Shown: in pieces, positions 48,147 through 63,894 of the stretch
Layout: every line of letters starts with the position of its first letter
How positions within the stretch are numbered: position 1 is the first letter of the stretch
Origin: Burkholderiaceae bacterium
GTDB taxonomy: Bacteria; Pseudomonadota; Gammaproteobacteria; Burkholderiales; Burkholderiaceae_C
Assembly (NCBI GenBank): GCA_026125795.1
Contig: JAHCKM010000001.1
Coordinates: forward strand, 868,001 to 932,000
Direction of reading: 5' to 3'
Length of the DNA: 64,000 nt
Translations under genes and position numbers: made by a program
Notes under the pieces: model-generated
The model's database searches: none
Told to the model about the DNA's origin: nothing
Seen by the model: only the letters and a program-made list of their open reading frames with translations

Positions 48147-48163
48147 CACGGGGACTGTCAACC

Positions 48164-49995
48164 TTGTTCAGCAAGATCCTGATCGCCAACCGCGGCGAAA
48201 TCGCCTGCCGCATCGCGCGCACCTGCCGGCGCCTGGGCGTGGCCGCCGCGGGCGTGCACTCGGCCGCCGACCGCGACGCGCTGCACGTGCGCGAGATCGG
48301 CGAATCGGTCGAGATCGGCGGCGCGGCAGCCGCCGAGAGCTACCTGCGCATCGACGCGGTGATCGCCGCGGCGAAGTCGGTCGGCGCGCAGGCCATCCAT
48401 CCGGGCTTCGGCTTCCTGGCCGAGAACGCCGCGTTCGCCCGCGCGGTCGAGGCGGCTGGCCTCGTCTTCATCGGCCCCACGCCCGATGTCATCGAGCGGC
48501 TCGGCGACAAGGCGGCGGCCAAGCGCGAGGCCGACGCCGCCGGCGTGCCGATCGTGCCGGGCAGCCAGACGCCGAGCACCGATCCCGAGGAGATCGCAGC
48601 CACCGTGCGCCGCATCGGCCTGCCGGTGATGCTCAAGGCGGCGGCCGGCGGCGGCGGCAAGGGCATGCGCGGCATCGAGTCGATGGACGGCCTGGCGCAG
48701 GAGATCGAGTCGGCGATGCGCGAGGCGAAGAACTCGTTCGGCGACGCCGGGCTGATCGTCGAGAAGCTGATCCGCCGCGGCCGCCACATCGAGATCCAGA
48801 TCGCCGGCGACGGGCGGGGCAAGGTGATCCATCTGTACGAGCGCGAGTGCACGCTGCAGCGCCGCCACCAGAAGGTGATCGAGGAGGCGCCGGCCGCCAA
48901 CCTGGGCGCGGCGATGCGCGACCGCATGGCGGCCGACGCGGTGCGCCTGGGCGAGCGGCTGAAGTACCGCGGCGTCGGCACCGTGGAGTTCATCGTCGGC
49001 GAGACGGACTCTGCGCCGAAGACGCCGCCGCCGGCTTCCGGCCGTCGACCGGCCGCCTGTCGCTGGTGCGTTTTCCGGGCGACGGGGTGCGCATCGAGAC
49101 CGGCATCGAGTCGGGCATGGAGGTCACGCCGTTCTACGACTCGATGCTGGCCAAGCTGATCACCCATGCACCGACGCGCGACGAGGCGCTCGACCGCCTC
49201 GCGCGCGCGCTCGACGACACGGCGGTGTTCGGCGTCACCGGCAACATCGGCTTCCTGCGCCACCTGATCGACCTGCCCGAGACGCGCGCGGCGAGCTTCC
49301 ACACGCGGCTCATCGACGAGCAGATCGGCGGCTGGGCGCTCGCGCACGTGCGCCATGACGAACGCACGCTGGCGACCGCGGCGGCGCACTGGCTGCGCGG
49401 GCGGCGCGCGGCCGACGGGCGCAGCCCCTGGTCCGCCTGGGACCGCAGCGGCTGGCAGCTCGCCAACGGCGACGGCGGGCTGGCGCCTGTGCCCAGCCTG
49501 CACGTCGAGACCGCCGACGGGGTCAGCGCGGAGATCCGCTTCGGCCCGGTGGTTGCCGCCGGCGGCCTGCTCGTCGGCGTGAACGACGCACGCGTGCCGA
49601 TCCATCTGGGCGCGGCCGGCGCCGATGGGCGCTGCCTGAGCGTGGTGGACGGCCGCCGCGAGACGGTGCTCGTGCACGAGGACGGCGACACCCTGTACGT
49701 GCAGGATCGCCGCGGCACGCACGAGCTGAAGGCCATTCCGTACCTGTCCTACATCAGCGCGTCGACGCAGGCCAGCGGCGACGTGAAGGCGCCGATGATG
49801 GGGCTGATCCTCAAGGTCAGCGTCGCGCCGGGCGACCGTGTCGAGAAGGGCAGCGTCGTCGCCATCCTCGAGTCGATGAAGATGGAGATGCGCATCTGCG
49901 CCGAATGCGCCGGCACGGTGGCGACCGTGGCTTGCACGCCGGGGCAGACCGTCGAGCGCAGCGCGATCGTGGCGACGATCGAGCCGGACGGATGA
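48164..49995 (+). pseudogene. Acyl-CoA carboxylase alpha subunit with catalytic-core deletion and frameshift
   Basis: TTG start at 48164 gives FSKILIANRGEIACRIARTC and an intact N-terminal half up to GTVEFIVGETD (about 49008). The next recognisable residues, LCAEDAAAGFRPSTGRLSLV, are in another frame. About 57 codons are missing compared with the homologue at 1-1571, including EMNTRLQVEHPVTE, which provides the biotin carboxylase catalytic residues. From there the second frame is intact to the biotin motif ESMKME and stop 49995. With the core lost and the frame broken this cannot be a working biotin carboxylase. The same lesion occurs in the duplicate at 58030. Confidence 0.85.
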
Positions 49996-50516
49996 TGCCT
50001 GCTCCGAACCGTTGGGACCGGTTCGAATCCGGTTTCGTGCTGAACCTCGGTGCCCTGCTGTTCGCCGCCGCGACGCTGGTGATGCTGTCCGAGGGGTTCA
50101 ATCGGTCTTTCCGCGGCCTGAGCTTCTTCTGGGCCGAGGAGTCGGTGCGCTTTCTGATGATCTGGGCGTTCTTCCTGACGCTGGGCATCACCGGGCGCAG
50201 CGGACACCACATTCGTACCGAGCTGCTGGTGGACCGCATGCCACCGAAGCTGCGCCGCGCGATGCACGCCGTCGCGGTGGCGGCAGGGCTGCTGTTCGCG
50301 GCCGTGCTGTTCGGTTCGTCGCTGCCGCAACTGTGGCGCTACTACACGATGGGCATGATGTCCGAGTCCGACCTGGACCTTCCCCAATGGGTCGTGTTCC
50401 TGGCGATGCCGATCGGCGCGGCGCTGTACTTCGGCTACTACCTGCGCTCGCTGCTGACGCTGCTGCGCGGCGGCGACCCCTTCGCATCCAGCGGGCCCAC
50501 GGGCTCGGAACTGTAG
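49992..50516 (+). CDS. TRAP transporter small permease, DctQ family (system 3)
   Basis: A 174-residue DctQ protein with four hydrophobic segments and the family loop GRSGHHIRTELLVDRMPPKLRR. Its ATG overlaps the stop of the broken carboxylase (ATGA), so it relies on translation across that gene's second frame or on its own initiation; a second ATG follows at once at 49995. The large permease follows 10 bases downstream. Confidence 0.88.
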   Translation: MMPAPNRWDRFESGFVLNLGALLFAAATLVMLSEGFNRSFRGLSFFWAEESVRFLMIWAFFLTLGITGRSGHHIRTELLVDRMPPKLRRAMHAVAVAAGLLFAAVLFGSSLPQLWRYYTMGMMSESDLDLPQWVVFLAMPIGAALYFGYYLRSLLTLLRGGDPFASSGPTGSEL

Positions 50517-50526
50517 TCGGCAGCCC

Positions 50527-51795
50527 GTGCTGCTCGTTGCCGCGATCGTCCTGCTGCTGCTGCTGCTGGCCATCGGCTCGCATGTCGCGGTTGCCATGGG
50601 CCTGGTGACCACCGGCCTGATCCTGATGCTGGACGGCGTTCCGGCGACGGTGATCGCGCAGACGGCCTTCAAGTCGGTCAACAGCTACCCGCTGATGGCG
50701 ATCCCGATGTTCGTGCTGGCCGGCAACCTGATGATGCGCGGCAACATCGCCGGGCTGATGATCGAGCTGATCGGCAGCATCGTGCGCGCGGTGCGCGGCG
50801 GCCTGGCCCTGACGGTGTTGATCGCCTGCGTGTTCTTCGCCGCCATCTCGGGCTCGAGCGTCGGCTCGGCGGCGGCCATCGGCGCGGCCACCGTCGACGG
50901 GCTCAGGCGCGAGGAGTATCCGGCGCGCTTCTCGGCCGGCATCGTCGCCGTCGGGGGAACGCTCGGACTGATGATTCCGCCCTCGCTGGGTTTCATCCTG
51001 ATCGGCGCCATCGTCGGCCTGCCGGTCGACAAGCTGTTCGTCGCCGGCATCGTGCCGGGTCTGCTGGAGGCGGCGCTGCTGATGGGCGCCGTGGTCTACC
51101 TGTCGCGCCGCCACGGCTACGGCACCACCACGCGCCGCGCGGACCTGGCCGGCTTCGTGCGGCGCACGCCCAAGGCCCTGCCGGCGCTGGTCATGCCGGT
51201 GCTGATCATGGGCAGCATCTACACCGGGTACCTGACGCCCACCGAAGTGTCGGCCTTCGCCGCGGCCTATGCCGCGCTGCTGTGCCTGCTGGTGTATCGC
51301 AGCGTCGATCCGGCCGGCGTGTGGAGCGCGGTGCGCGACTCGCTGCTGCAGACGACGATGATCTTCGCCGTCGTGATGGGCGGCAGCCTGATCGGCTTCG
51401 TGCTCGCGCGCATGGGCGTGTCGGCGCAGCTCGTGGCCGGCATCGACGCGCTGGAAATGTCGGCCTGGCAGTTCCTGCTGCTGGCCAACGTCATCCTGCT
51501 GGTGCTGGGCATGTTCCTTGACGGCGTGGCAATGATCGTGCTGACCGCGCCGCTGCTGTTTCCGATGGCGACCGCGCTGGGCATCAACCCGATCCACTTC
51601 GCGGTGATCATGGTCGCGAACGTGGAGATCGCGACACTCACCCCGCCGGTCGGCCTGAACCTGTTCGTGATGAGCGGCATCGCCAAGCTGCCGGTCCACG
51701 AAGTCGTGCGCGGCGTCGCCCCCTTCTACGGCGTGCGCCTGACGGCGCTCATGCTCATCACCTACGTGCCGGCGATCGCCCTGCTGCTCGTGTAG
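50527..51795 (+). CDS. TRAP transporter large permease, DctM family (system 3)
   Basis: A 422-residue DctM protein: ISGSSVGSAAAIGAATVDGL, VGGTLGLMIPPSLGFILIG and LTPPVGLNLFVMSGI are the conserved segments. GTG start at 50527. It converges on the receptor gene at 51828, so in this system the receptor is transcribed separately from the opposite strand. Confidence 0.92.
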   Translation: MLLVAAIVLLLLLLAIGSHVAVAMGLVTTGLILMLDGVPATVIAQTAFKSVNSYPLMAIPMFVLAGNLMMRGNIAGLMIELIGSIVRAVRGGLALTVLIACVFFAAISGSSVGSAAAIGAATVDGLRREEYPARFSAGIVAVGGTLGLMIPPSLGFILIGAIVGLPVDKLFVAGIVPGLLEAALLMGAVVYLSRRHGYGTTTRRADLAGFVRRTPKALPALVMPVLIMGSIYTGYLTPTEVSAFAAAYAALLCLLVYRSVDPAGVWSAVRDSLLQTTMIFAVVMGGSLIGFVLARMGVSAQLVAGIDALEMSAWQFLLLANVILLVLGMFLDGVAMIVLTAPLLFPMATALGINPIHFAVIMVANVEIATLTPPVGLNLFVMSGIAKLPVHEVVRGVAPFYGVRLTALMLITYVPAIALLLV

Positions 51796-51827: not shown

Positions 51828-52850
51828 CTATTTCTTGCCGGCGCAAGACGCCTGCAGTGCAGCCAGGCTGCGCGCCGTGTCGGGGTACTTGTCGGTGAAG
51901 CTCTTGTTCACCGCAGCCGCCCGCTCCTTCCAGCGCGCGATTTCCGCGGGCGACGCCGAGCGATGGACGGCCCCCATGCCGATCATCTTCTCGACCAGCT
52001 GGCGGTCGGCCTCGATGGCCTCGCGCCACTGGCGCTGCGCGATCTCGTCGATGGTGTCGCTGATCGCCTTGCGCTGATCGGCGGGCAGCTTGGCGAACCA
52101 GGTCTGGTCCACCACCACCGCATAGGTGCCGATCGACATCCCCGGCACGTACCACGCGTGCTTGGCGGTGATGCCGATCATCTCGGCCCAGCCCGCGGGC
52201 GACGTGAACACGCCGTCGACCGAGCCCTGCGACAGCGCGGTGCTCATCTCGGAGGCGGGCAGCGAGACCGGGCTCGCGTCCATCGAGCGCACCATGTCCT
52301 GGAAGATCTTGCCGCCGGTGACGCGCACCTTGGCGCCCTTCAGATCCTCGAGCTTCTGCACGTCGCGGTTCTTGAATACGAACATCAGATCGGCCGTGCG
52401 CAGCAGCCCCAGCACTTCGAGCTTGCGCCCCTCGACGTAGGACGACAGCAGCTTGGAGGCACCGCCGGCGAAGCAGCGGTTCTCCATCAGCTCGTCGGTG
52501 AGCGTGAACGGCAGGTTGACGATGCCGGCGCGTGGATCGAGCGTCTCCAGCCGCACCGACAGCGGCCACACCATGTGGACGGCACCGGTGCCCAGGGCCG
52601 CCATGGCGTCCTGGTCGTTGTAGAGCTGCCCGGCGGGGAAGACCTTCACGATCAGCGCACCGTTGGTGCGCTTCTTCACCTGGTCGGCGAACTCGTTCAT
52701 GTAGCGCGTCTTCCAGTGCGTCACCGCGATCTCGCTGGGCAGCACCATCTCGGCTGCCCGTGCCGAGGCCGGGGCGACCCACGTGGCGGCGGACAGGACG
52801 GCCGCCAGCAACACGCGCGCCAGCAGATGCTGATCGGGTCGGTTCTTCAT
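51828..52850 (-). CDS. TRAP transporter solute receptor, DctP family (system 3)
   Basis: A 340-residue receptor with Sec signal (residues about 10-32, ending ARA) and mature start AEMVLPSEIAVTHWKTRYMNEFAD. It has LEDLKGAKVRVTGGKIFQDM (substrate-arginine region) and SQGSVDGVFTSPAGW. Convergent with its permease genes, and divergent from the GntR regulator with a palindrome between them, so its expression may be controlled by that regulator together with the mutase operon. Confidence 0.92.
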   Translation of the reverse strand: MKNRPDQHLLARVLLAAVLSAATWVAPASARAAEMVLPSEIAVTHWKTRYMNEFADQVKKRTNGALIVKVFPAGQLYNDQDAMAALGTGAVHMVWPLSVRLETLDPRAGIVNLPFTLTDELMENRCFAGGASKLLSSYVEGRKLEVLGLLRTADLMFVFKNRDVQKLEDLKGAKVRVTGGKIFQDMVRSMDASPVSLPASEMSTALSQGSVDGVFTSPAGWAEMIGITAKHAWYVPGMSIGTYAVVVDQTWFAKLPADQRKAISDTIDEIAQRQWREAIEADRQLVEKMIGMGAVHRSASPAEIARWKERAAAVNKSFTDKYPDTARSLAALQASCAGKK

Positions 52851-52979: not shown

Positions 52980-53741
52980 GTGAACCTGGCGACCGCTGCG
53001 CCAGCGCCCGCCCGGTCGCGTCACGCGGTCGTCGCGCGCTTGCTCATGGACGGCATCGCCGAGGGCCGCTACGCCGTGGGAGGTCTGCTGCCGTCCGAAG
53101 CCGAGCTGTGCCGGCAGCTGGATGTCTCGCGCACCACGCTGCGCGAGGCCATGCGGGCGCTGCGCGACCGCGGCCTGGTGCTGCCGCGCGCAGGCGTCGG
53201 GACGCTGGTCGTCGCGGCCCGGCCGAAGACGCGCTACGTGCACTCGGTCGACTCGATCTCGGACGTCTTCCAGTACGCCAAGAACTCGCTGCGCCCGCGG
53301 GTGCTGAGCACCACCGAGGTCAGGGCTGACGCCGCCGAGGCCGAACTGCTGCGCTGCCCGGCGGGCGAGCGTTGGCTGCGTGTCGAACTGACGCGCACCT
53401 TCCGCGGCGACCGCGCGCCGATCCTGTGCGCCCGCGTTTACATCCCGCTCGCCTGCGCCTCGATCGCCGAGCGCATCCCGACGCGCAGCGACCCGATCTA
53501 CACACTGCTCGAGAGCGAACTCGGGCTCACTGTGCTGGGCGTCGAGCAGGAGTTCCGGTCCGTCGCGCTCGACGCCGACACCGCCCGGCACCTGGGCACC
53601 GCGGCCGGCGCTCCCGGCCTGAGCGTGGTGCGCCACTACTTCGGCGCCGCCGACCGCCTGCTGCTGGTGACGGCCAGCCTCTATCGAGCCGACCGCTACA
53701 GCTACAAGATGCGGCTGCGCTTCAACCCGCAGCAAGCCTGA
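52980..53741 (+). CDS. GntR-family regulator (HutC/UTRA type)
   Basis: A 253-residue regulator. N-terminal winged helix (residues about 18-85): IAEGRYAVGGLLPSEAELCRQLDVSRTTLREAMRALRDRGLV, then RAGVGTLVVA. The C-terminal 150 residues fit a UTRA-like small-molecule domain. Start GTG 52980 is the first in frame but lacks a strong ribosome site; ATG 53047 would cut into the winged helix. A 26-codon frame starting at 52903 overlaps the GTG (GTGA) and may be a leader or chance. Sixteen bases separate it from the mutase operon, its probable target. Confidence 0.87.
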   Translation: MNLATAAPAPARSRHAVVARLLMDGIAEGRYAVGGLLPSEAELCRQLDVSRTTLREAMRALRDRGLVLPRAGVGTLVVAARPKTRYVHSVDSISDVFQYAKNSLRPRVLSTTEVRADAAEAELLRCPAGERWLRVELTRTFRGDRAPILCARVYIPLACASIAERIPTRSDPIYTLLESELGLTVLGVEQEFRSVALDADTARHLGTAAGAPGLSVVRHYFGAADRLLLVTASLYRADRYSYKMRLRFNPQQA

Positions 53742-53757: not shown

Positions 53758-55161
53758 ATGCCCGTCACCCTGGCCGTCGACTTCGGCAGCACCTACACCA
53801 AGGTCGCGGCCATCGATTGCGACGACGAGCGGCTCGTCGGCCGGGCACAGTCGCCCACCACGGTGGCCGAAGGCGTGATGGTGGGCCTCGGACGCGCCCT
53901 GGCCCTGCTCGAAGCCACGTGCGGCGTGAAGCGCGACGACATCGGCCAGCGTCTGGCTTCGTCGAGCGCCGCGGGGGGCCTGCGCATGGTGGCCATCGGC
54001 CTGGTTCCCGACCTCACGGCCGAGGCGGCGCGCCGCGCCGCGCTAGGCGCCGGAGCCAAGGTGCAGCGCGTGTTCGCCTACGAACTCTCGGGCGGCGACG
54101 TCGACGAGATCGTGCGCCTCGCGCCGGACCTCATCCTGCTGTGCGGCGGCACCGACGGCGGAGAGCGCAAGACCATCGTCAGGAATGCCGGGGTGCTGGC
54201 CGCCGCGCGCGTCGGTGCGCCCGTCGTCGTGGCCGGCAACCGCAGCGCGGCCGACGAGGTGAAGGCTGTGCTGCAAGACGCCGGCGTCGACTGCGTGGTC
54301 GTCGGCAACGTGCTGCCCGAACTCGACCGGCTCGACGTCGAACCGGCGCGCGCGGCCATCCGTTCGGTGTTCATGGAGCGCATCGCGCACGCCAAGGGGC
54401 TGGACCAGGCCGAGGCCTATGTCGGCCGCATCGTCATGCCCACGCCGATGGCGGTGCTCGAGGGGGCGCGCCTGCTCGCCGCCGAGGGCGGCATGGGCGA
54501 CGCCGTGATCGTCGATGTCGGCGGCGCGACCACCGACATCCACTCCATCGCCAGCGGGCTGCCTAGCACACCGGGACTGGTGCCGCGCGGCTTGCCGGAG
54601 CCGTTCGCCAAGCGCACCGTCGAGGGCGACCTCGGCCTGCGCATCAACGCGCCGACGATCGTCGAGGCGGCCGGTGCGGCGCGCGTGGCTGCGCTGGCGG
54701 GCCTGGGCTGGACGGCGCAGGCCGTTGCGGACCACGTGCAGCGCCTGGCGCAGGCCGTCGATCACGTGCCCGGCACGGCCGCGGAACACGCGCTCGATGC
54801 CGCGCTTGCGCAGCTGGCCGTCGACGTGGCGCTGGAGCGCCATGCCGGCCAGGTCACAACCAGCTACACGCCGATGGGCGCGGTGCAACTGCTGCACGGC
54901 AAGGATCTCGGCGCGGTGTCCACGGTTGTCGGCACGGGCGGCGTGCTCGTGCACGGGCGACACCCGCGGCGCGTGCTCGAAGCGGCGTGCTATTCGGCGG
55001 GCTCGCCGACCTCGCTGCGTCCGCGCGCGCCGGCGCTGCTGATCGATCGTTCGTACCTCCTGTTCGCCGCCGGTCTGCTCGCGCCGATCGCCCCGCTCGC
55101 CGTCGCGCGCCTGCTGCGACGCCATCTCGTTGCTGCCGAAGAGGCTCCTCATGACACCTGA
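53758..55161 (+). CDS. glmL: B12-mutase reactivase (GlmL/MutL family)
   Basis: A 467-residue ASKHA-fold ATPase: phosphate-binding loop VDFGSTYTK (residues 7-15), [13 protein letters not shown] and second phosphate motif [12 protein letters not shown] (about 250-262). GlmL/MutL proteins restore glutamate mutase whose cobalamin has been damaged or lost, by ATP-driven exchange. It stands first in the operon and overlaps glmS by 11 bases. The symbol denotes family; the mutase it serves may not be a true glutamate mutase (see glmE). Confidence 0.9.
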
Positions 55162-55597
55162 CACCCCGACCAAGGGCACGCTCGTGCTCGGCGTCATCGG
55201 CGCCGACATCCACAACATCGGCATCACCATCCTCGCCTCGGCCTTGCGCAGCGGCGGGTTTCACGTCGTCAACCTCGGCATCCTCGTGTCGCAGGAGGAT
55301 TTCGTGAAGGCCGCGATCGAGACCGCCGCCGACGCGATCCTCGTGTCCTCGCTGTGCGGTCACGGCGAACTCGACTGTCCGGGGCTGCGCGAGAAGTGCG
55401 TCGAGGCAGGGCTCGAAGGCATCCTGCTCTATGCGGGGGGCAACGTGGTGGTCGGCAAGCAGGAGTGGGAGCCGGTGCGTCGGCGCTTCGCCGCCATGGG
55501 CTACGACCGCACCTACCCGCCCGGCACCACGCCGCACGAGGTGATCGACGCGTTGACCGCGGACATCGCCGCCAGGAAGCAGGAGGCCCGCCCATGA
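55151..55597 (+). CDS. glmS: B12-binding small subunit of a glutamate mutase-like enzyme (GlmS/MutS)
   Basis: A 148-residue cobalamin-binding flavodoxin-like domain. The B12 signature GADIHNIG gives D-x-H-x2-G (Asp19, His21, Gly24), His21 being the lower cobalt ligand; [11 protein letters not shown] and [13 protein letters not shown] match the GlmS pattern of serine and GG loops around the nucleotide tail. Length and sequence are close to clostridial GlmS (137 residues). It overlaps glmL and, by ATGA, glmE. Confidence 0.94.
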
Positions 55598-57048
55598 ACA
55601 GCACCCAGGTCGCGTTGTCGATGGCTCGCTGGGACGAAGAGCGCTTCCGGCGCGTGCGCCGCGAGGTGCTCGGCGCCTGGCCCACCGGCGCGCAGGTCGA
55701 CCTCGACGAAGCCTGCGACTTTCACCGCAGCCTGCCCGACGCGCAGAACACGGCCTGGCGGCTGCGCAAGGCGCGCAGCGAGGGCCGCACCCTCGTGCAG
55801 CCGCGCGCCGGCGTGGCCGACATCGAACAGCACATTGCGCTGCTGCAAAGCCTGCGCCGCGCCGGCGCCGACCTGCTGCCGACGACGATCGACTCCTATA
55901 CGCGCGAGTGCCGCTACGCCGACGCCGAACGCGGCTTGGCACAGAGCCGCGAGGCGGGCCGCTCGCTACTGAACGGGCTGCCCGCCGTGAACTACGGCGT
56001 GAACGAATGTCGCCGCATCGCACGCACCGTCGACGCACCGCTGTTCGCGCGCACCGCCTCGCCCGACTGCCGCCTCACGCTCGACATCCTCTACGCCAGC
56101 GGCTACACGTCGTGCACCGCGGGGCCGGTGGTCTTCTCGCTCGGCTATGCGAAGGACTACCCGCTGGCCAAGGCGATCGAATCCTGGCAGTACTCGTATC
56201 GGATGATGGGCGCGATGCACGAACGCGGCGTGACCGTGAGCGTCGAGCACTACCTGCCGATCTCGACCCTGGTGCCGCAGTCGACCTCGATGGCCTGCGT
56301 GATCCTCGACTCGCTCATCGCCGCGGCGCAGGGCGTGCGCGACATCTCGCTGGGCATCGGCCAGCAGTGCCACCTGGCGCAGGACGCGGCGGCCCTGCGC
56401 GCCTACCCCGCGCTGGGGCGCCACTACCTCGACGCCATCGGTTGCAAGGACGTGGCGCTGAGCACCGTGATGTCGCAGTGGATGGGCGGGTTTCCGCCCG
56501 ACGAGGGCCAGGCTTTCGGCGTCATCTGCATGGCGGCGCTCGCCGCTTACCTCGGCGGCGTGACCTACATGATTTCGAAATCGCCGCACGAGGCGATCGG
56601 CGTGCCGACGCCGCAGGCCAATGCCCACGGCCTCACGGCGTCGAAGACGGTGCTGCGCATGCTGGCCGACCAGCAGCTCGCACCGATTGCCGAGATCGCG
56701 GCCGAGCAGGCCATCATCGAAGCCGAGACCCGTGCCATCGTCGACCGCGCGCTCGAACTGGGCGAGGGCGACGCCGCGCTCGGCGCGGTGCGGGCCATCG
56801 AGGCCGGCGTGATCGACGTGCCGTTCTCGCCGAACCGCATGAACGCCAACCGCGCGTTGCCGGCGCGCGACTGCCGCGGCGCGGTGCGGCTGGCGGAATT
56901 CGGCGGCGTCCCCATCCCCAAGGAGATCCGCGCGCACCACGAGGATCAGCTCGCGAAGCGCGCGGCAGGGCGACCCCGGCGCGAGCCGTGGGAGCTGCTG
57001 CTGGCGGACGTCAATGCCATCGCCGACGGGGTCCTGCTGCCGGATTGA
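55594..57048 (+). CDS. glmE: Large subunit of a glutamate mutase-like B12 enzyme with altered substrate site (GlmE-like)
   Basis: A 484-residue TIM-barrel chain colinear with clostridial glutamate mutase E (483 residues): [61 protein letters not shown]. The three substrate-carboxylate arginines are kept (Arg71, Arg104, Arg153, equal to Arg66, Arg100, Arg149). The residue that binds the substrate amino group, Glu171, is Thr175 here; His150 is Thr154 and Tyr177 is Phe181, while Tyr181 is kept as Tyr185. So it probably rearranges a dicarboxylic acid without the amino group. No methylaspartate ammonia-lyase gene is nearby. Strong ribosome site AGGAGG. Confidence 0.92.
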
Positions 57049-57179: not shown

Positions 57180-57660
57180 GCGAATGCGGCCAGCCGTCCG
57201 CTTGATTCCGGCGCTGCGGATGATCTGCTGGTAGCGCGCCCGATCGTAGGACAGGAGCCTGGCGCGACGATCGGCTTGGGCGTGCCGGCAGCCGCGAGCA
57301 CCGCGAACCACAAGCTCGGGTCCATGTTGCGAACGCCTGGCAAGTCAGGGAATGCGGCGAGCCGCTTGCTGCCGTCACCGCCAATGCCTTCAGGCGCCCG
57401 TCTTCGATAATGGGCGCCGACGTGACCGGCACATCGAAGATGAATTGAACCCGTCCGCCGATCAGCTCGGTGAGCAAGGGCGCGGTGCCCGGGTAGGCCA
57501 CGTTCAGCGCCTTGACGCCGTCTTCGGCCATGAACATCTCCGCGACCAGCCTCGTGACGCTGGCACTGCCCACCGAGCCTACGTTTGGCGCGCCGGGGTT
57601 GGGCCTTCGCTAACTCGATGAAGGCGCCCCGGCTCGCCGGCTGCCAGCGGACCGGGCAGC
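57180..57660 (-). pseudogene. Bug/TctC receptor remnant, paralogue of the gene at 59342
   Basis: On the minus strand, blocks of a Bug protein appear in shifting frames: FIELAKAQ, VTRLVAEMFMAEDGVKALNV, YPGTAPLLTELIGGRVQF, PVTSAPIIEDGRLKALAV, GSKRLAAFPDLPG, SLWFAVLAAAGTPKPIV, then, after a deletion of about 50 codons, YDRARYQQIIRSAGIK. Each block matches the intact receptor at 59342-60331. Signal sequence and N-terminal third are missing. The 131 bases between glmE and this remnant show nothing. Confidence 0.82.
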
Positions 57661-58029: not shown

Positions 58030-59277
58030 CGCCGGGCTGATCGTCGAGAAGCTGATCCGCCGCGGCCGCCACATCGAGATCCAGATCGCCGGCGACGGGC
58101 GGGGCAAGGTGATCCATCTGTACGAGCGCGAGTGCACGCTGCAGCGCCGCCACCAGAAGGTGATCGAGGAGGCGCCGGCCGCCAACCTGGGCGCGGCGAT
58201 GCGCGACCGCATGGCGGCCGACGCGGTGCGCCTGGGCGAGCGGCTGAAGTACCGCGGCGTCGGCACCGTGGAGTTCATCGTCGGCGAGACGGACTCTGCG
58301 CCGAAGACGCCGCCGCCGGCTTCCGGCCGTCGACCGGCCGCCTGTCGCTGGTGCGTTTTCCGGGCGACGGGGTGCGCATCGAGACCGGCATCGAGTCGGG
58401 CATGGAGGTCACGCCGTTCTACGACTCGATGCTGGCCAAGCTGATCACCCATGCACCGACGCGCGACGAGGCGCTCGACCGCCTCGCGCGCGCGCTCGAC
58501 GACACGGCGGTGTTCGGCGTCACCGGCAACATCGGCTTCCTGCGCCACCTGATCGACCTGCCCGAGACGCGCGCGGCGAGCTTCCACACGCGGCTCATCG
58601 ACGAGCAGATCGGCGGCTGGGCGCTCGCGCACGTGCGCCATGACGAACGCACGCTGGCGACCGCGGCGGCGCACTGGCTGCGCGGGCGGCGCGCGGCCGA
58701 CGGGCGCAGCCCCTGGTCCGCCTGGGACCGCAGCGGCTGGCAGCTCGCCAACGGCGACGGCGGGCTGGCGCCTGTGCCCAGCCTGCACGTCGAGACCGCC
58801 GACGGGGTCAGCGCGGAGATCCGCTTCGGCCCGGTGGTTGCCGCCGGCGGCCTGCTCGTCGGCGTGAACGACGCACGCGTGCCGATCCATCTGGGCGCGG
58901 CCGGCGCCGATGGGCGCTGCCTGAGCGTGGTGGACGGCCGCCGCGAGACGGTGCTCGTGCACGAGGACGGCGACACCCTGTACGTGCAGGATCGCCGCGG
59001 CACGCACGAGCTGAAGGCGATTCCGTACCTGTCCTACATCAGCGCGTCGACGCAGGCCAGCGGCGACGTGAAGGCGCCGATGATGGGGCTGATCCTCAAG
59101 GTCAGCGTCGCGCCGGGCGACCGCGTCGAGAAGGGCAGCGTCGTCGCCATCCTCGAGTCGATGAAGATGGAGATGTGCATCTGCGCCGAATGCGCCGGCA
59201 CCGTGGCGACGGTCAGCTGCAAGCCGGGGCAGACCGTCGAGCGCAGCGCCGTGGTGGTGACGGTCACACCTGCCTGA
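58030..59277 (+). pseudogene. Second copy of the deleted biotin carboxylase gene, 3' two thirds
   Basis: Corresponds to 48745-49995. The first 1.1 kb are almost identical (I noted only two differences before base 59173), including the same catalytic-core deletion and frame change at VEFIVGETD/LCAEDAAAG. The last 100 bases (after MKMEM) are homologous but clearly diverged, ending SCKPGQTVERSAVVVTV. It lacks the start and the first third of the gene and begins inside a Bug fragment on the other strand, so it is not expressed as a carboxylase. Confidence 0.88.
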
Positions 59278-59341: not shown

Positions 59342-60331
59342 CTACTGCTCGAGCTTGATCCCGGCGCTACGGATGATCTGCTGATAGCGCGCCCGATCAT
59401 CGAACAGCAGTCTGGCGGTCGCCTCCACCGAAGAGGGCCAGGGCTCGAAGAACTGCTGCTCGAGCAGGCCGCGCACCTCCGGCAGTGCGAGCGCGCGATT
59501 GATCTCGGCATTCAGCCTGGCCATGATCGGCTTGGGCGTGCCGGCAGGCGCGAGCACCGCGAACCACAAGCTCAGGTCCATGTTGCGAACGCCCTGTTCG
59601 GCGAAGGTCGGCACGTCGGGGAATGCGGCAAGCCGCTTGCTGCCGGTCACCGCCAGAGCCTTCAGGCGCCCGTCTCTGATAAAGGGCGCCGACGTGACCG
59701 GCGTATCGCAGGTGAATTGAACCCGTCCTCCGATCAGGTCGGTGAGCAGGGGCGCGGTGCCCGGGTAGGCCACGTTGACCGCCTTGATGCCGGCTTCGGC
59801 CATGAACATCTCCGCGACCAGCCTCGTGGCGCCGGCACTGCCCACCGAGCCGACGTTGAGCGCGCCGGGTCGGGCCTTCGCCAGCTCGATGAAGGCGGCC
59901 AAGCCGTTTGCCGGCACCGAGGGGTGGACGACGAGAATCGTCTCGGTCTTGACGAGCGTCGCCACGGGAGTGAAGTCGTCGAGCGGATGGTACGGCAGGC
60001 TCTGCATCAGCAGGCCGTTGATCAGGTGAGTATTGGCGACCAGGCCGATGGTGTAACCGTCAGCCGGCGAGCGAGCGAGCGCCTGCATGCCGATCACGGT
60101 ATTGCCGCCCGCGCGGTTCTCGACCAGCACCGATTGCTTCAACGATTCGGCGACCTTGTCGCCGACGAGGCGCGCAACGAAGCTGGTGCTGCCGCCCGGG
60201 CTGTATGGCACGATGAAACGGATCGGTTTCGTGAACGGGCTGTCCGTTTGCGCGAAGACGCCAGGCGCGGCGGCGCCCGCCACGCTCGCCGCCAGCCCTC
60301 GCAGAATCTCTCTCCGGGTGGTCCTGTCCAT
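59342..60331 (-). CDS. Bug/TctC-family periplasmic receptor
   Basis: A 329-residue receptor. The N-terminus MDRTTRREILRGLAASVAGAA has a twin-arginine-like pattern and ends in VFAQ, so Tat or Sec export is possible. Bug motifs: KPIRFIVPYSPGGSTSFVAR, NRAGGNTVIGMQALARSPADGYT and LAPAGTPKPIM. ATG 60331 is chosen for the GGAGAGAG just upstream; the frame is open to 60382. It is the intact relative of the remnant at 57180. Confidence 0.92.
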   Translation of the reverse strand: MDRTTRREILRGLAASVAGAAAPGVFAQTDSPFTKPIRFIVPYSPGGSTSFVARLVGDKVAESLKQSVLVENRAGGNTVIGMQALARSPADGYTIGLVANTHLINGLLMQSLPYHPLDDFTPVATLVKTETILVVHPSVPANGLAAFIELAKARPGALNVGSVGSAGATRLVAEMFMAEAGIKAVNVAYPGTAPLLTDLIGGRVQFTCDTPVTSAPFIRDGRLKALAVTGSKRLAAFPDVPTFAEQGVRNMDLSLWFAVLAPAGTPKPIMARLNAEINRALALPEVRGLLEQQFFEPWPSSVEATARLLFDDRARYQQIIRSAGIKLEQ

Positions 60332-60523: not shown

Positions 60524-61327
60524 TCATCTCGCGACCTGGTCCATCAGCGCGGGGGACAGGGCGGGGTAGCCGCTGTCCGCGGGGAGGGCGGGGACGGTCT
60601 TGCCGTCGGCGCGGCGCGCCAGCGTCGGCTGGATGCGCTGCACCGAGCGCGCGCCGGCGGCAGCCATCGCGGCTGACACGTCGGTTGCCTGCGCGAGCAG
60701 TGCCAGGTTGCACAGTGTCGGAAAGATGATCACGCGACGGCGCTGCTCGCACTCGGCCATTGCGTCGGCGGGGCGCACCCAGAACGCATCGACCGCTTCG
60801 CGGCCGTCGTGCACCGCGACCTGGCCGGCCGGCGCTTGTGCGATGAAGAAGTGGGTGTCGAAGCGCTTGGGTGAGACCTCCGGCGTGACCCAATGCGCGA
60901 AGGGGACCAGCAGGTCCAGCGCCAACTCGAGATCCTCTTCGCAGACCATCTCGACGAAGGCGTCGGCCGAGGCCAGAACCCGCGCGTGCCAGCCTCGCCA
61001 CAACGCGGCGCCACTCTCGGCGCCGAGCACCTCCCCGCGCCGGCGGGCGAGCAGCAGGGCGCTCTCCTCGAAGGTCTCCCGGACGGCGGCGATGCGCAGC
61101 GAGCGCTGCAATTCGTCGAGCGCCGCGTCGGCGCAGCGCGTGCGCAGCCGGTCGTCGCGGTCGGCTGCGGCTGCCTTGCCACCGGGAAACACCGCCGCCC
61201 CTCGCGCGAAATCGATCTCGTGGTGCCGCTCCACCATCAGCACTTCCAGCCCACCCGGCCCGTTGCGGATCAGGACGGCGGTGGCGGCCGGAACGGCCGG
61301 CACCGGGCGGCTCGGCTCGGCGCCCAT
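60524..61327 (-). CDS. Nudix hydrolase, NUDT19/acyl-CoA diphosphatase-like
   Basis: A 267-residue Nudix protein. FPGGK (residues 47-51) and RETFEES (83-89) are the two ends of the Nudix box, but about 32 residues lie between GG and RE instead of the usual dozen. Such an insertion is characteristic of the NUDT19-like branch, whose animal members hydrolyse CoA and acyl-CoA to 3',5'-ADP and acyl-phosphopantetheine. ATVFP-type strand and HWVTPEVSPKRFDTHFF are also as in that branch. Its ATG overlaps the stop of the ACAD gene (ATGA). In an acyl-CoA pathway it could manage CoA levels (inference). Confidence 0.85.
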   Translation of the reverse strand: MGAEPSRPVPAVPAATAVLIRNGPGGLEVLMVERHHEIDFARGAAVFPGGKAAAADRDDRLRTRCADAALDELQRSLRIAAVRETFEESALLLARRRGEVLGAESGAALWRGWHARVLASADAFVEMVCEEDLELALDLLVPFAHWVTPEVSPKRFDTHFFIAQAPAGQVAVHDGREAVDAFWVRPADAMAECEQRRRVIIFPTLCNLALLAQATDVSAAMAAAGARSVQRIQPTLARRADGKTVPALPADSGYPALSPALMDQVAR

Positions 61328-62469
61328 CAGACCCGCATCTCCTGCGCGATGATCGTGCGCTGGATCTGCGACGTGCCGCCGCCGATCGTCGACTGCATGC
61401 CCTCGCGGAAATAGCGCTCCATGTCGGCCTCGGGCGTGGTGCCGATGCCGCCCAGGATCTGCATGCCCTGGCGCGAGACGTTCTGCAGCGTCTCGGAGGC
61501 GAACAGCTTGGCCATCGCCACTTCCTTGCGGCAGGGATGTCCGCGTGCGGCGAGTTCGGCGGCGCGGTAGGCGAGCAGCCGCGCAGCGTCGGTCTGCGTC
61601 TGCATGTCGGCGAGCATGTGGCGGATGACCTGGAACTCGAAGATCGGCTTGCCGAACTGCACCCGCTGCTTGGCGTAGGCCAGTGCGTCGTCGACCGCAC
61701 CCTGGGCGTTGCCGACATAGCTGGCCGCCACCGCCACGCGCTCGAGCACGAGGTGCTCGCCGGCGATGATCTTGAAGCCGTCGCCTTCGGCACCCAGCCG
61801 GTTGGCCACAGGCACGCGCACGTCGTCGAGGAAGATCTCGGTGGTCACGACCGAGCGCCGCGCGAGCGTCTGCAGCGGACGGATCGTCAGGCCCGGCAGG
61901 TCGTTGGGCACGATGAGCACCGTCAGGCCGTCGCGCTTGTCCGCCGTCTGCGCGGTGCGCACCAGCATCAGGATCACGGCGCCGCGGTTGCCCGCGCCGC
62001 TGCACCACAGCTTCTGGCCGTTGAGCACGTAGTGGTCGCCCCGGAGTTCGGCGCGCGTCTGCACGTTGGCTACGTCGGAGCCGGCGTTCGGCTCCGACAT
62101 CGAGATCGGGAAGCGGATCTCGCCGCGCATGAACGGTTCGAGGAAGCGCTGCTTCTGGTCGGGCGTGCCGTGCAGCGACAGGTTCATCGCCGTGAAGATG
62201 CCACCGGCAACGGCCACCGAGAAGTCCACGCCGTAGGCCGACAGCGCCTCGCACATCAGCGCGTAGGCGAAGACATCGCCGCCGTCGCCGCCGTCGGCTT
62301 CCGGCACGAGCAGCCGGTGATAGCCGAGCCTGGCTGCCTTCTCATAGGCGTCGTACGGGAAGGCGCGCTCCATGTCGCACTTGCGGATGTACTCGCGCCC
62401 GACATCGCGGTCGACCCAGCGACGCACCGAGTCCTTCCAGGCCTGTTGTTCTTCGGTCAGAAAGTTCAT
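61327..62469 (-). CDS. Acyl-CoA dehydrogenase
   Basis: A 380-residue ACAD: SMSEPNAGSDVANVQTRAE, NGQKLWCSGAGNRGAVIL, LVLERVAVAASYVGNAQ (helix G glutamate-arginine), ILGGIGTTPEADMERYFRE and TIGGGTSQIQRTII at the C-terminus. It belongs to the minus-strand operon crotonase - MmgE/PrpD - ACAD - Nudix. Substrate unknown. Confidence 0.92.
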   Translation of the reverse strand: MNFLTEEQQAWKDSVRRWVDRDVGREYIRKCDMERAFPYDAYEKAARLGYHRLLVPEADGGDGGDVFAYALMCEALSAYGVDFSVAVAGGIFTAMNLSLHGTPDQKQRFLEPFMRGEIRFPISMSEPNAGSDVANVQTRAELRGDHYVLNGQKLWCSGAGNRGAVILMLVRTAQTADKRDGLTVLIVPNDLPGLTIRPLQTLARRSVVTTEIFLDDVRVPVANRLGAEGDGFKIIAGEHLVLERVAVAASYVGNAQGAVDDALAYAKQRVQFGKPIFEFQVIRHMLADMQTQTDAARLLAYRAAELAARGHPCRKEVAMAKLFASETLQNVSRQGMQILGGIGTTPEADMERYFREGMQSTIGGGTSQIQRTIIAQEMRV

Positions 62470-62490
62470 CGCGTGGCATGCCTCCGGCAG

Positions 62491-63894
62491 TCAGTGCACG
62501 GGTCCGCCCGCCAGCAGGCCGGCGAGCGGCGACAGGTCGGGCAGCTCTTCGAGGCGACCGACCAGATCGAGCAGTTCGTCGCAGGCCTGCGTGCCGATGC
62601 GAGGGCCAGCCATCGAGCGGAACTTGTCCGCTAGGCGCCGTTGCTGCGCCGCGAGGTCGCTCGCCGGCACGCCACAGTCGTGCCGACGGCGCAGCCGCGC
62701 CCCGTCGATGGTCTCGATGACCACTTCCGCCTGGGTCAGCGCATCGCAGTGCGAGTGCAGTTCGACGTGCACGCGCTCCCGCAATGTCCTCAACGCCGCG
62801 TCGGCGGTCGCCTGGTCGGTAAAGCTCGACGGGGCCGCGGTGTCCGCGCCGGCCAGCGCCAGTGCGACCGCATGCCGGAGGCTGAACTTGGCCTCCAGGC
62901 CGTTACGCGGGTCCTGGATGTTGCACACCCCTGCGCTGGCGGCCGAGGCATGGACCACGATGCGCCGCAACGCGCCTGCCTGCAGGTCGTGGTGCTCGCG
63001 CAGGTGCCGGGCCGCCTCGATCGCGGCATGGGTGCCGTAGCAGGTGGCGTGGTACTTGAACAGGTTCCCGCGCAGGTGCAGGCCCTGCACGGGCTCGCCC
63101 AGCGCTGCGGCCTGGTCGAAGTCGGGGCCGTGCGTCGCGGCGAAGCCCTGCGCCGCCTCGATCGCGTCGGGGCGGCTGGTGAAGCCCCGCGCGGCGAGTT
63201 GCGCGGCCATCATGCCGTCCGCGCTGGCTCTGCCAGCATGCAGCGGCTTGCACATCGTGCCGAACATCGACTTCAGGCCGGCCGCTTCGGTGGCGGCGAT
63301 GCCGAGTGCAACGGCGGTGTCGTCGGGGTCGAGGCGCAGCAGCCGCGCGCAGGCCGCGGCTGCGCCGAAGGTGCCAATGGTCCCCGTCGCGTGGAAGCCC
63401 GAGGCGTAGTGGCCCGGCGAGACCGCGGCCCCGATGCGGCACATCGTTTCGTAGCCGGCGACGAAGGCGGTCATGAACGCGGCGCCGCCTTCGCCACGGG
63501 CTTCGGCCAGCGCGAGCAGCGCAGGCACGAGCACGACGCTCGGGTGCCCGGTGAAGCTCATGTTCACGTCGTCGAAGTCGAGCGCGTGGGAAGCGGCGCC
63601 GTTGATCAGCGCGGCCTGCCGGCAGCTCGTCGCGAAGCCCTGGCCGATGACGGTGGACTGGGGGCGGCCGCCCTGCTCGCGCGCCTCTTCGGAGAGCATG
63701 CAGGTCAGCGGCTCGTGTGCGCCGGCGAGCGTCACCGCGATCCAGTCGAGCAGGCACTGGCGCACGAGCTCGCGCGCGTCCGAGGGCAGCGCGAGGAAGT
63801 GCCAGGCGGCGTTGCGCTCGGCCAGCGCGCTGGTCAGTTGCAGGGTCGGCGGCACGGACAGTCGTGCAGCGACGGCGGCGGTCTGGACGTTCAT
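62491..63894 (-). CDS. MmgE/PrpD family protein
   Basis: A 467-residue cofactor-independent dehydratase/decarboxylase-fold protein: LDWIAVTLAGAHEPL, INGAASHALDFDDVNMSFTGHPS (the conserved GxxxHxxDFDD...HP block), FHATGTIGTFGAAAACARLL and FKYHATCYGTHAAIEAAR. Family members include 2-methylcitrate dehydratase PrpD and cis-aconitate decarboxylase. Here it lies between crotonase and ACAD genes, suggesting a branched dicarboxylic or tricarboxylic intermediate. Ends 21 bases before the ACAD start. Confidence 0.9.
   Translation of the reverse strand: MNVQTAAVAARLSVPPTLQLTSALAERNAAWHFLALPSDARELVRQCLLDWIAVTLAGAHEPLTCMLSEEAREQGGRPQSTVIGQGFATSCRQAALINGAASHALDFDDVNMSFTGHPSVVLVPALLALAEARGEGGAAFMTAFVAGYETMCRIGAAVSPGHYASGFHATGTIGTFGAAAACARLLRLDPDDTAVALGIAATEAAGLKSMFGTMCKPLHAGRASADGMMAAQLAARGFTSRPDAIEAAQGFAATHGPDFDQAAALGEPVQGLHLRGNLFKYHATCYGTHAAIEAARHLREHHDLQAGALRRIVVHASAASAGVCNIQDPRNGLEAKFSLRHAVALALAGADTAAPSSFTDQATADAALRTLRERVHVELHSHCDALTQAEVVIETIDGARLRRRHDCGVPASDLAAQQRRLADKFRSMAGPRIGTQACDELLDLVGRLEELPDLSPLAGLLAGGPVH

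What the first reader, a model, noticed from the sequence alone, without database searches (positions are those of the whole stretch)
55594..57048. Glutamate mutase-like B12 enzyme that has lost its amino-group recognition: possible new carbon-skeleton mutase
By hand alignment with clostridial glutamate mutase E, the three carboxylate-binding arginines (66, 100, 149) are kept as Arg71, Arg104 and Arg153, and Tyr181 as Tyr185. Glu171, which holds the substrate ammonium group, is Thr175, His150 is Thr154 and Tyr177 is Phe181. The rest of the chain, the GlmS subunit (D-x-H-x2-G intact) and the GlmL reactivase are well conserved, so the enzyme should be active. A dicarboxylic acid with no amino group (for example a glutarate, methylsuccinate or methyleneglutarate type) would fit the remaining site. 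The operon sits beside a TRAP carboxylate transporter and a GntR regulator in an acyl-CoA island and lacks methylaspartate ammonia-lyase, which a true methylaspartate pathway would need.
Basis: partly seen in the sequence, partly recalled or inferred. Interest (0 to 1): 0.87.

Follow-up and report, generated by a model that had tools for sequence, protein, structure and literature searches.

The report
B12 mutase for amino-free dicarboxylates
A few bacteria carry a relative of the vitamin-B12 enzyme glutamate mutase that has lost the residue gripping the amino group, and genes linked to it suggest that it rearranges an amino-free acid, perhaps glutarate into methylsuccinate, which would be a new kind of reaction if an assay confirms it.

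Summary
GlmE (55594-57048) is 45% identical to clostridial glutamate mutase; R66, R100, R149 and Y181 are kept, E171, H150 and Y177 are T175, T154 and F181. Four orthologues (80-83%, MAGs) share the changes; dN/dS is 0.11-0.33. Of 36 homologues 21 keep Glu171, among them all six with methylaspartate ammonia-lyase (MAL) next door. MAL has no match over cut-off in the five genomes. In L004 the mutase genes lie between MmgE/PrpD and MaoC, acyl-CoA dehydrogenase and CaiB genes, resembling the methylsuccinate cluster of Gonner et al. 2025; the window's TRAP transporter goes with such genes in two other genomes; the dehydrogenase orthologue is in 5 of 5 clade genomes and 19 of 399 of the order. Best reading: a mutase joining a linear and a branched amino-free C5 dicarboxylate, most likely glutarate and (S)-2-methylsuccinate; 2-hydroxyglutarate/3-methylmalate is the main rival. 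Substrate is inferred. Another Burkholderiales GlmE group and one further type also lack Glu171. New variant of a known kind.

The parts
55594..57048 (+). glmE-like catalytic (epsilon) subunit, 484 aa, amine contact Glu171 replaced by Thr175
   Evidence: PF06368 518 bits, TIGR01503 520 bits (cut-off 390), 45% identity to 1cb7_B
55151..55597 (+). glmS-like B12-binding (sigma) subunit, D-x-H-x2-G intact; overlaps glmL and glmE
   Evidence: TIGR01501 185 bits (cut-off 136), PDB 1i9c_A E 5e-51; start ATG read by eye from the ORF
53758..55161 (+). glmL reactivase (MutL ATPase)
   Evidence: NF040745 563 bits (cut-off 475), PF13941; L004's GlmL is 75% to the window and 70-71% to L006/L007
52980..53741 (+). 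GntR/UTRA regulator heading the glmLSE run; orthologues in L004, L006, L007, none seen in L005
   Evidence: PF00392 + PF07702; 59-64% identity to the window's
51828..52850 (-). TRAP solute-binding protein DctP, divergent from the operon (start chosen by eye)
   Evidence: NF037995 132 bits (cut-off 50), TIGR00787 119 bits (under its cut-off 175); nearest solved chain 4mx6, a C4-dicarboxylate DctP; 70% in L006/L007, 59% in L099
50527..51795 (+). TRAP large permease DctM
   Evidence: TIGR00786 345 bits (cut-off 268); 79% in L006/L007, 82% in L100, 75% in L099
49905..50516 (+). TRAP small permease DctQ
   Evidence: 63-69% in L006/L007, 74% over 113 residues in L100, 55% in L099
62491..63894 (-). 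MmgE/PrpD protein 5 kb away, 21 nt from an acyl-CoA dehydrogenase gene; only a possible partner (26-31% to the MmgEs of the module described)
   Evidence: PF03972/PF19305; identities; H103, D106, H117, Y163, H168
61327..62469 (-). acyl-CoA dehydrogenase paired with the above; only a possible partner (35% to the module's dehydrogenase)
   Evidence: PF00441/PF02771/PF02770

Best explanation
An adenosylcobalamin-dependent carbon-skeleton mutase (GlmS+GlmE, kept active by the GlmL reactivase) whose substrate is a five-carbon dicarboxylate without an amino group. The intact arginine claw holds both carboxylates; a neutral pocket (Thr154, Thr175, Phe181) replaces the ammonium site. The enzyme links a linear and a branched C5 dicarboxylate, so that a TRAP-imported or internal acid can pass through a methylsuccinate/itaconate-type module (MmgE/PrpD, CaiB CoA-transferase, acyl-CoA dehydrogenase, MaoC hydratase, CitE-type lyase). 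Most likely pair: glutarate and (S)-2-methylsuccinate. Shown: residues, conservation, gene linkage, co-occurrence. Inferred: activity, substrate, direction.
For: Site: R66/R149/R100 kept, E171T/H150T/Y177F in 5 of 5. Constraint: dN/dS 0.11-0.33. No MAL over cut-off in five genomes; MAL next to glmE in 6 of 7 annotated plasmid loci out of 9 fetched, those six with Glu171. Linkage: L004 order GntR-MmgE-glmL-glmS-glmE-MaoC-ACAD-CaiB-GntR; the window's TRAP orthologues sit in one run with MmgE-ACAD-CaiB-GntR in L099 (MaoC too) and L100. Co-occurrence: ACAD orthologue in the four other clade genomes at 72-81%, besides the query's own, vs 19 of 399 in the order sample; MmgE directly next to it in G000, G893, G894. 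Function of a cluster like this: MmgE/PrpD = (S)-(R)-methylsuccinate isomerase, ACAD = methylsuccinyl-C4-CoA dehydrogenase, CoA-transferase prefers (R) (PMC12290011). Glutamate-mutase geometry applied to glutarate would give (S)-methylsuccinate, the form that needs that isomerase (own CIP reasoning). Of the C5 acids weighed here only methylsuccinate also uses the dehydrogenase.
Against: The migrating group of glutarate would be a plain carboxymethyl radical, less stabilised than glycyl (general chemistry); I know of no B12 mutase that does this. The mutase is directly linked to the CoA-ester genes in only 1 of 5 loci (to the TRAP in 3 of 5). In G000, G893 and G894 only the MmgE-dehydrogenase pair was found: the best MaoC is 57%, 58% and 41% and lies elsewhere; CaiB and lyase were not sought genome-wide. 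The dehydrogenase occurs mostly without this mutase (17 of 19 order genomes). Two of the four co-occurrences (G000, G892) were known before and the other two (G893, G894) are near kin; searches scored only 3-4 candidates per genome, so the background may be low. The module's MmgEs have His where the assayed isomerase has Tyr148 (7 of 7, placed by spacing) and L004's is nearest to cis-aconitate decarboxylase among solved chains (133 bits; IDS epimerase 111). MaoC, CaiB and CitE score under the equivalog cut-offs of named enzymes. In L005 glmL is reduced to a 78-residue match.
Confidence: 0.37

Rival explanations
1. 2-Hydroxyglutarate mutase: (S)-2-hydroxyglutarate to 3-methylmalate, a deaminated copy of the methylaspartate pathway in which an MmgE/PrpD dehydratase would take the place of MAL and give mesaconate.
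For: Two Thr replace Glu and His, fitting a neutral hydroxyl; a glycolyl radical is stabilised; glutamate mutase itself is recalled to turn over L-2-hydroxyglutarate slowly (Roymoulik et al. 2000; recalled, not found); a gene of the isocitrate/isopropylmalate dehydrogenase family, which could act on 3-methylmalate, lies 3 kb from glmE in L005; the module's MmgEs lack the epimerase tyrosine.
Against: Gives no role to the acyl-CoA dehydrogenase that is linked in L004 and present in 5 of 5 clade genomes. 3-Methylmalate was not among the compounds reported for the assayed MmgE isomerase; citramalate and malate were inactive (PMC12290011).
Confidence: 0.23
2. Mutase for another amino-free acid: 2-oxoglutarate (to 3-methyloxaloacetate), 2-methyleneglutarate (to 3-methylitaconate), or a 2-substituted glutarate filling the enlarged pocket.
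For: Carbonyl and methylene migration are chemically easier than carboxymethyl migration (general B12 chemistry); H150T, E171T and Y177F make the pocket larger and neutral.
Against: I saw no gene typical of those routes in the loci read, but the gene lists were read by eye and only part was profiled; the linked module resembles one for C5 branched dicarboxylates.
Confidence: 0.21
3. It is still a glutamate mutase that holds the amine in another way.
For: 45% identity; over the TIGR01503 equivalog cut-off (520 vs 390); full S/L/E set.
Against: Glu171 and His150 are kept in the six MAL-linked enzymes but changed in 5 of 5 here; no MAL over cut-off in five genomes.
Confidence: 0.13
4. A decaying gene set with no function.
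For: Truncated glmL match in L005; 13 residues missing near the C-terminus of L007's GlmE; duplicated carboxylase and Bug fragments beside the window operon.
Against: No stops inside the five glmE matches, dN/dS 0.11-0.33, claw residues invariant.
Confidence: 0.03

Closest known systems
Clostridial glutamate mutase GlmS/GlmE with GlmL (1cb7, 1ccw, 1i9c, 6h9e, 6h9f)
   Same: Sequence over the full length (45%), arginine claw, Lys326/Glu330, GlmS B12 motif, GlmL reactivase
   Different: Glu171, His150, Tyr177 replaced; loop 214-221 changed with one residue lost; no MAL; other neighbours; gene order L-S-E, against S-L-E in five of the six MAL-linked loci
Itaconate/methylsuccinate degradation cluster of Cupriavidus/Pseudomonas (Gonner et al. 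2025, PMC12290011; de Witt et al. 2023, PMC9875883)
   Same: MmgE/PrpD and acyl-CoA dehydrogenase (families named in the papers) with a CoA-transferase, hydratase, lyase and transporter, as found around or with the mutase in relatives
   Different: 'mutase' occurs 0 times in the main text of the 2025 paper. That its transferase, hydratase and lyase belong to the same protein families as ours was not checked; the paper says that Yersinia- and Pseudomonas-type clusters arose convergently. The MmgEs here lack Tyr148
2-Methyleneglutarate mutase (recalled)
   Same: B12 mutase on an amino-free dicarboxylate
   Different: Recalled to differ in subunit make-up; not compared here
Acyl-CoA mutases (methylmalonyl-, 2-hydroxyisobutyryl-CoA)
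   Same: AdoCbl carbon-skeleton rearrangement; a homologue lies near the MmgE-dehydrogenase pair in G000
   Different: Act on CoA esters; another large-subunit family

Membership tests
GlmE protein family (PF06368, TIGR01503) | Profile match over curated cut-off | tested here: met
   518 vs 26.6 bits and 520 vs 390 bits
GlmE protein family (PF06368, TIGR01503) | Partner GlmS with D-x-H-x2-G and GlmL in one operon | tested here: met
   overlapping genes
Functional glutamate mutase (EC 5.4.99.1) | Arginine claw R66, R100, R149 | tested here: met
   R71, R104, R153
Functional glutamate mutase (EC 5.4.99.1) | Glu171 contact to the substrate amine | tested here: not met
   Thr175; Thr in 5 of 5 orthologues
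Functional glutamate mutase in a methylaspartate pathway | Methylaspartate ammonia-lyase in the genome | tested here: not met
   No PF07476 match over cut-off in 5 of 5 genomes, four of them MAGs
Functional glutamate mutase (EC 5.4.99.1) | Glutamate to 3-methylaspartate activity | not testable with these tools
   needs an enzyme assay
Methylsuccinate degradation pathway (Gonner 2025) | MmgE/PrpD gene next to an acyl-CoA dehydrogenase gene | tested here: met
   G000 (L098), G893 (L115), G894 (L116), and the mutase-free L099, L100; in L004 the two are split by glmLSE and MaoC; no MmgE match in L076 of G892
Methylsuccinate degradation pathway (Gonner 2025) | Isomerase catalytic residues including Tyr148 | tested here: not met
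   No Tyr there in 7 of 7 module MmgEs (His at +46 from the His102 equivalent); placed by spacing, not by alignment to the assayed enzyme; two invariant Lys columns and the His/Asp/His are kept
Methylsuccinate degradation pathway (Gonner 2025) | Orthology to the assayed C. necator / P. aeruginosa enzymes | not tested
   their sequences were not obtained

The most novel reading that the evidence does not exclude
A glutarate to (S)-2-methylsuccinate mutase: the first B12 enzyme to shift a plain carboxymethyl group, a biological source of methylsuccinate, and a carbon-saving route from glutarate to acetyl-CoA plus pyruvate. It belongs to a radiation in Burkholderiales in which at least three GlmE types lost Glu171 and took up different substrates.
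Probability: 0.25. Interest if true: 0.88.

Novelty: new variant of a known kind. Interest (0 to 1): 0.7.

Why it matters
Few B12 carbon-skeleton rearrangements are known (recalled). A glutamate-mutase scaffold that keeps its carboxylate claw but drops the amine contact would show how this scaffold changes substrate, and would test whether a migrating group without a stabilising heteroatom can be handled at all. Gonner et al. write that no natural pathway for methylsuccinate was known until itaconate reduction by gut bacteria was reported; a mutase making it from glutarate would add another. The window protein passes the curated methylaspartate mutase model, so pipelines will give it a name that its active site and genome do not support.

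Tried and rejected
Considered and set aside: a true methylaspartate pathway (no MAL over cut-off). Substrate from the TRAP binding protein: nearest solved chains are C4-dicarboxylate and other DctPs at low similarity, not decisive. The window's own MmgE/dehydrogenase pair (61327-63894) as the partner: only 26-31% and 35% to the module's proteins and not seen near the mutase in relatives; kept as a possibility. The MaoC at 57-58% in G000 and G893 lies in another cluster, by eye like leucine/isovalerate breakdown (no profile run), so it was not counted. The dehydrogenase of L004 is nearest to FadE3 (4iv6) among solved chains, which tells no substrate. A first list of clade-specific columns had clade II among the canonical rows and is replaced. 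Overlap of glmE-family genomes with dehydrogenase genomes in the order sample is 4 of 9 (hypergeometric p 4e-4), but three of the four are one genus and clade II, so it is not used as evidence. Rows left out of trees: L009, L011, L016 and these plus L031. Clades I and II join with 94-95% bootstrap and a long-branch warning, so one or two losses of Glu171 cannot be told apart there.

Literature: in the listings of searches I saw no paper on a glutamate-mutase homologue acting on glutarate, methylsuccinate or 2-hydroxyglutarate; most listed papers were not opened, and the library holds only CC-licensed PMC papers. The notebook entry names an IclR gene beside the L066 mutase; that was a guess by eye and is not upheld.

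Full report
What is there. The ORF 55594-57048 (+) encodes a 484-residue protein of the GlmE family (PF06368 518 bits; TIGR01503 520 bits against a cut-off of 390). It is preceded, in overlapping order, by glmS (55151-55597) and glmL (53758-55161), and these by a GntR/UTRA regulator (52980-53741); a TRAP transporter lies upstream (DctQ 49905-50516, DctM 50527-51795, DctP 51828-52850 on the other strand). The own genome (6.57 Mb, 6 contigs, 98.9% complete) gave one PF06368 match.

The active site. Against the clostridial enzyme (1cb7_B, E 1e-135; 45% identity) Arg66, Arg100 and Arg149 are R71, R104 and R153; Tyr181, Lys326 and Glu330 are kept, as are Gly68 and Asn123. Glu171 is T175, His150 T154 and Tyr177 F181; Gly151, Gly172, Pro180 and Pro215 are A, A, G and H, and one residue is lost at 221. 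Gruber et al. 2022 (PMC9545868; abstract and passages) state that the glycyl half is bound by R66, R149 and E171, the last to the amine, that the acrylate half is bound by R100 and Y177, and that the backbone of G68 and N123 holds the adenosine. So the carboxylate grip stays, the amine grip goes, and one hydroxyl to the acrylate half goes too.

How solid is it. A scan of the genome collection (84,980 species by its description) with exact peptide patterns, which finds close kin only, gave four orthologues at 80-83% (L004-L007; titles Betaproteobacteria, Burkholderiaceae, Burkholderiales and Rubrivivax MAGs). All five proteins share the eight changes; 34 of 180 columns invariant in eight canonical GlmEs are changed and fixed in them. 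Pairwise dN/dS is 0.11-0.33. Of 37 aligned rows 36 have a residue at position 171: 21 Glu, 7 Leu, 5 Thr, and one each Asp, Asn, Ser. Nine plasmid loci were fetched; seven are annotated, and in six of these MAL follows glmE; those six have Glu171, His150 and Tyr177. No genome of the clade has a PF07476 match over cut-off; four of the five are MAGs of untold completeness. The clade is rare: in overlapping samples of 150 family, 369 class, 398 phylum and 399 order genomes, a match of 80% or more appears only in the window's genome and in G980, by its coordinates the genome of L005.

The pathway around it. In L004 the mutase genes lie inside one run on one strand: GntR, MmgE/PrpD, glmL, glmS, glmE, MaoC hydratase, acyl-CoA dehydrogenase, CaiB CoA-transferase, second GntR. 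The MaoC is closest to the itaconyl-CoA hydratase model RipB/Ich (210 bits, cut-off 340), the CaiB to succinate-glutarate and succinyl-CoA:mesaconate CoA-transferases (224 and 210 bits, cut-offs 750 and 700), so neither passes as the named enzyme. Gonner et al. 2025 (PMC12290011; abstract, section 6, section 14 part 1 and passages) showed that a Cupriavidus/Pseudomonas cluster degrades methylsuccinate: the MmgE/PrpD protein is an (S)-(R)-methylsuccinate isomerase, the acyl-CoA dehydrogenase oxidises methylsuccinyl-C4-CoA, the CoA-transferase prefers the (R) form (88.0 versus 2.2 in the table passage), and hydratase and lyase give acetyl-CoA and pyruvate. De Witt et al. 2023 (PMC9875883; passages) reached the same by genetics. 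I did not check whether their hydratase, transferase and lyase are of the same protein families as those here.

Three lines tie the window's mutase to such a module. First, L004 itself. Second, the TRAP transporter: the window's DctM is 79% identical in L006/L007, beside the mutase, and 82% and 75% identical in genomes G1176 (L100, a 6-kb contig) and G1190 (L099), where it stands in one run with MmgE, acyl-CoA dehydrogenase (94% and 76% to that of L004), CaiB (84% and 65%) and GntR, with MaoC (74%) too in L099, and where the order search showed no GlmE. Third, co-occurrence: the dehydrogenase is in the four other clade genomes at 72-81% against 19 of 399 order genomes. In G000, G893 and G894 it is next to an MmgE/PrpD gene (85% between G000 and the other two). 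In G892 it is in a MaoC-dehydrogenase-CaiB-lyase run with a glyoxylate-reductase-like gene. Limits: G000 and G892 were known, and G893 and G894 are close kin; searches scored three or four candidates per genome; 17 of the 19 order genomes have the dehydrogenase without a clade-I mutase; in G000, G893 and G894 no MaoC above 58% was found and the CaiB and lyase were not sought genome-wide. The module thus exists without the mutase; the mutase looks like an added way in or out of it.

What it probably does. The known entry compound of such a cluster is a branched C5 dicarboxylate. A glutamate-mutase reaction on glutarate gives 2-methylsuccinate, and the geometry of (2S,3S)-3-methylaspartate gives the (S) form (my CIP reasoning; the priority order at that carbon is the same in both compounds). 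The CoA-transferase of the published cluster wants (R), which would explain an MmgE-type isomerase in the same run as glmLSE. No other C5 acid that I weighed uses the dehydrogenase too. Against it: a carboxymethyl radical lacks the stabilisation of a glycyl radical; the module's MmgEs have no Tyr at the place of Tyr148 of the assayed isomerase (7 of 7 have His by spacing), and L004's is nearest to cis-aconitate decarboxylase among solved chains, so their reaction may differ. 2-Hydroxyglutarate would be chemically easier, fits the two threonines, and MmgE could then be a dehydratase, but the dehydrogenase would have no role. I put 0.37 on the glutarate/methylsuccinate reading and about 0.8 on some amino-free dicarboxylate overall. 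The direction is open.

A wider pattern. The searches also brought a second group in the same order (L033-L037, L042, L058; seven proteins) with R149L, H150T, E171L and E214R; in four of six loci read (L045, L048, L050, L065) an enolase-superfamily gene lies in or near the run, and Tct transporter genes occur. A third type (L059/L066, one protein, from a relative of G893) keeps the claw but has E171N, H150G, Y177F and Y181V, and has its own TRAP genes. The genome of L005 carries both a clade-I and a clade-II enzyme. That the order is Burkholderiales is inferred from the titles and the kinship of G980. So the GlmE scaffold has probably been put to new substrates more than once.

Not in print, as far as seen: the listings of searches showed no report of such an enzyme. 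Structure prediction could not be completed, so the site rests on sequence alignment, which at 45% identity and without gaps between residues 100 and 214 is firm.

Noticed in passing
window 48745-49980 and 58030-59265: A 1,236-nt direct repeat (98.8% identical; reads by eye like the C-terminal part of a biotin carboxylase) flanks the TRAP-GntR-glmLSE block, 9,285 nt apart; a stretch of a Bug-type gene is also repeated (57256-57629 / 59514-59900, 87%). It suggests duplication or insertion by recombination around the mutase block.
   Followed up: partly
window about 48100-49995: The biotin-carboxylase-like reading frame changes frame near 49,000 and by eye lacks a middle stretch; the copy at 58030 shares this. 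Not tested further.
   Followed up: no
L033-L037, L042, L058 (loci L045, L048-L051, L065): A second GlmE group without Glu171: R149L, H150T, E171L, E214R in 7 of 7. Enolase-superfamily (MLE-type) gene in or near the run in 4 of 6 loci read, Tct transporter genes nearby.
   Followed up: partly
L050 12263-14000, L049 12476-15567: Near two clade-II mutases lies a gene like acylating sulfoacetaldehyde dehydrogenase SauS (L050: 789 vs cut-off 600 bits; 68% identical in L049) with an acyl-CoA ligase gene, hinting at a sulfonate link.
   Followed up: no
L059 / L066 6293-9557: A third GlmE type with all three claw arginines but E171N, H150G, Y177F, Y181V, beside a TRAP transporter and acyl-CoA genes.
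   Followed up: partly
L009 / L053 and L031: Outlying GlmEs: L009 has Q66, V149, S171; the Fusobacterium vincentii protein (L031) has Y66, K149, D171, H177. Possibly other substrates.
   Followed up: no
L098 2571-5934, L115 17867-19968, L116 17737-19838, L107 12200-15306: A split acyl-CoA mutase (the one of L098 is closest to 2-hydroxyisobutyryl-CoA mutase among solved chains) lies within about 8 kb of the MmgE-dehydrogenase pair in three clade-I genomes and on a Pseudosulfitobacter plasmid; a MeaB gene follows in L098 and L107.
   Followed up: partly
window 61327-63894: MmgE/PrpD and acyl-CoA dehydrogenase genes 21 nt apart on the minus strand; this MmgE has a tyrosine (Y163) where the module's MmgEs have His.
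   Followed up: partly
L005 2217-2450: glmL beside this clade-I mutase is reduced to a 78-residue match; real truncation or assembly error in a MAG not told apart.
   Followed up: no
L028 5476-7470: A GlmE with Glu171 on a Roseibium plasmid beside an amino acid adenylation-domain protein and an amino acid racemase, so perhaps for peptide biosynthesis.
   Followed up: no
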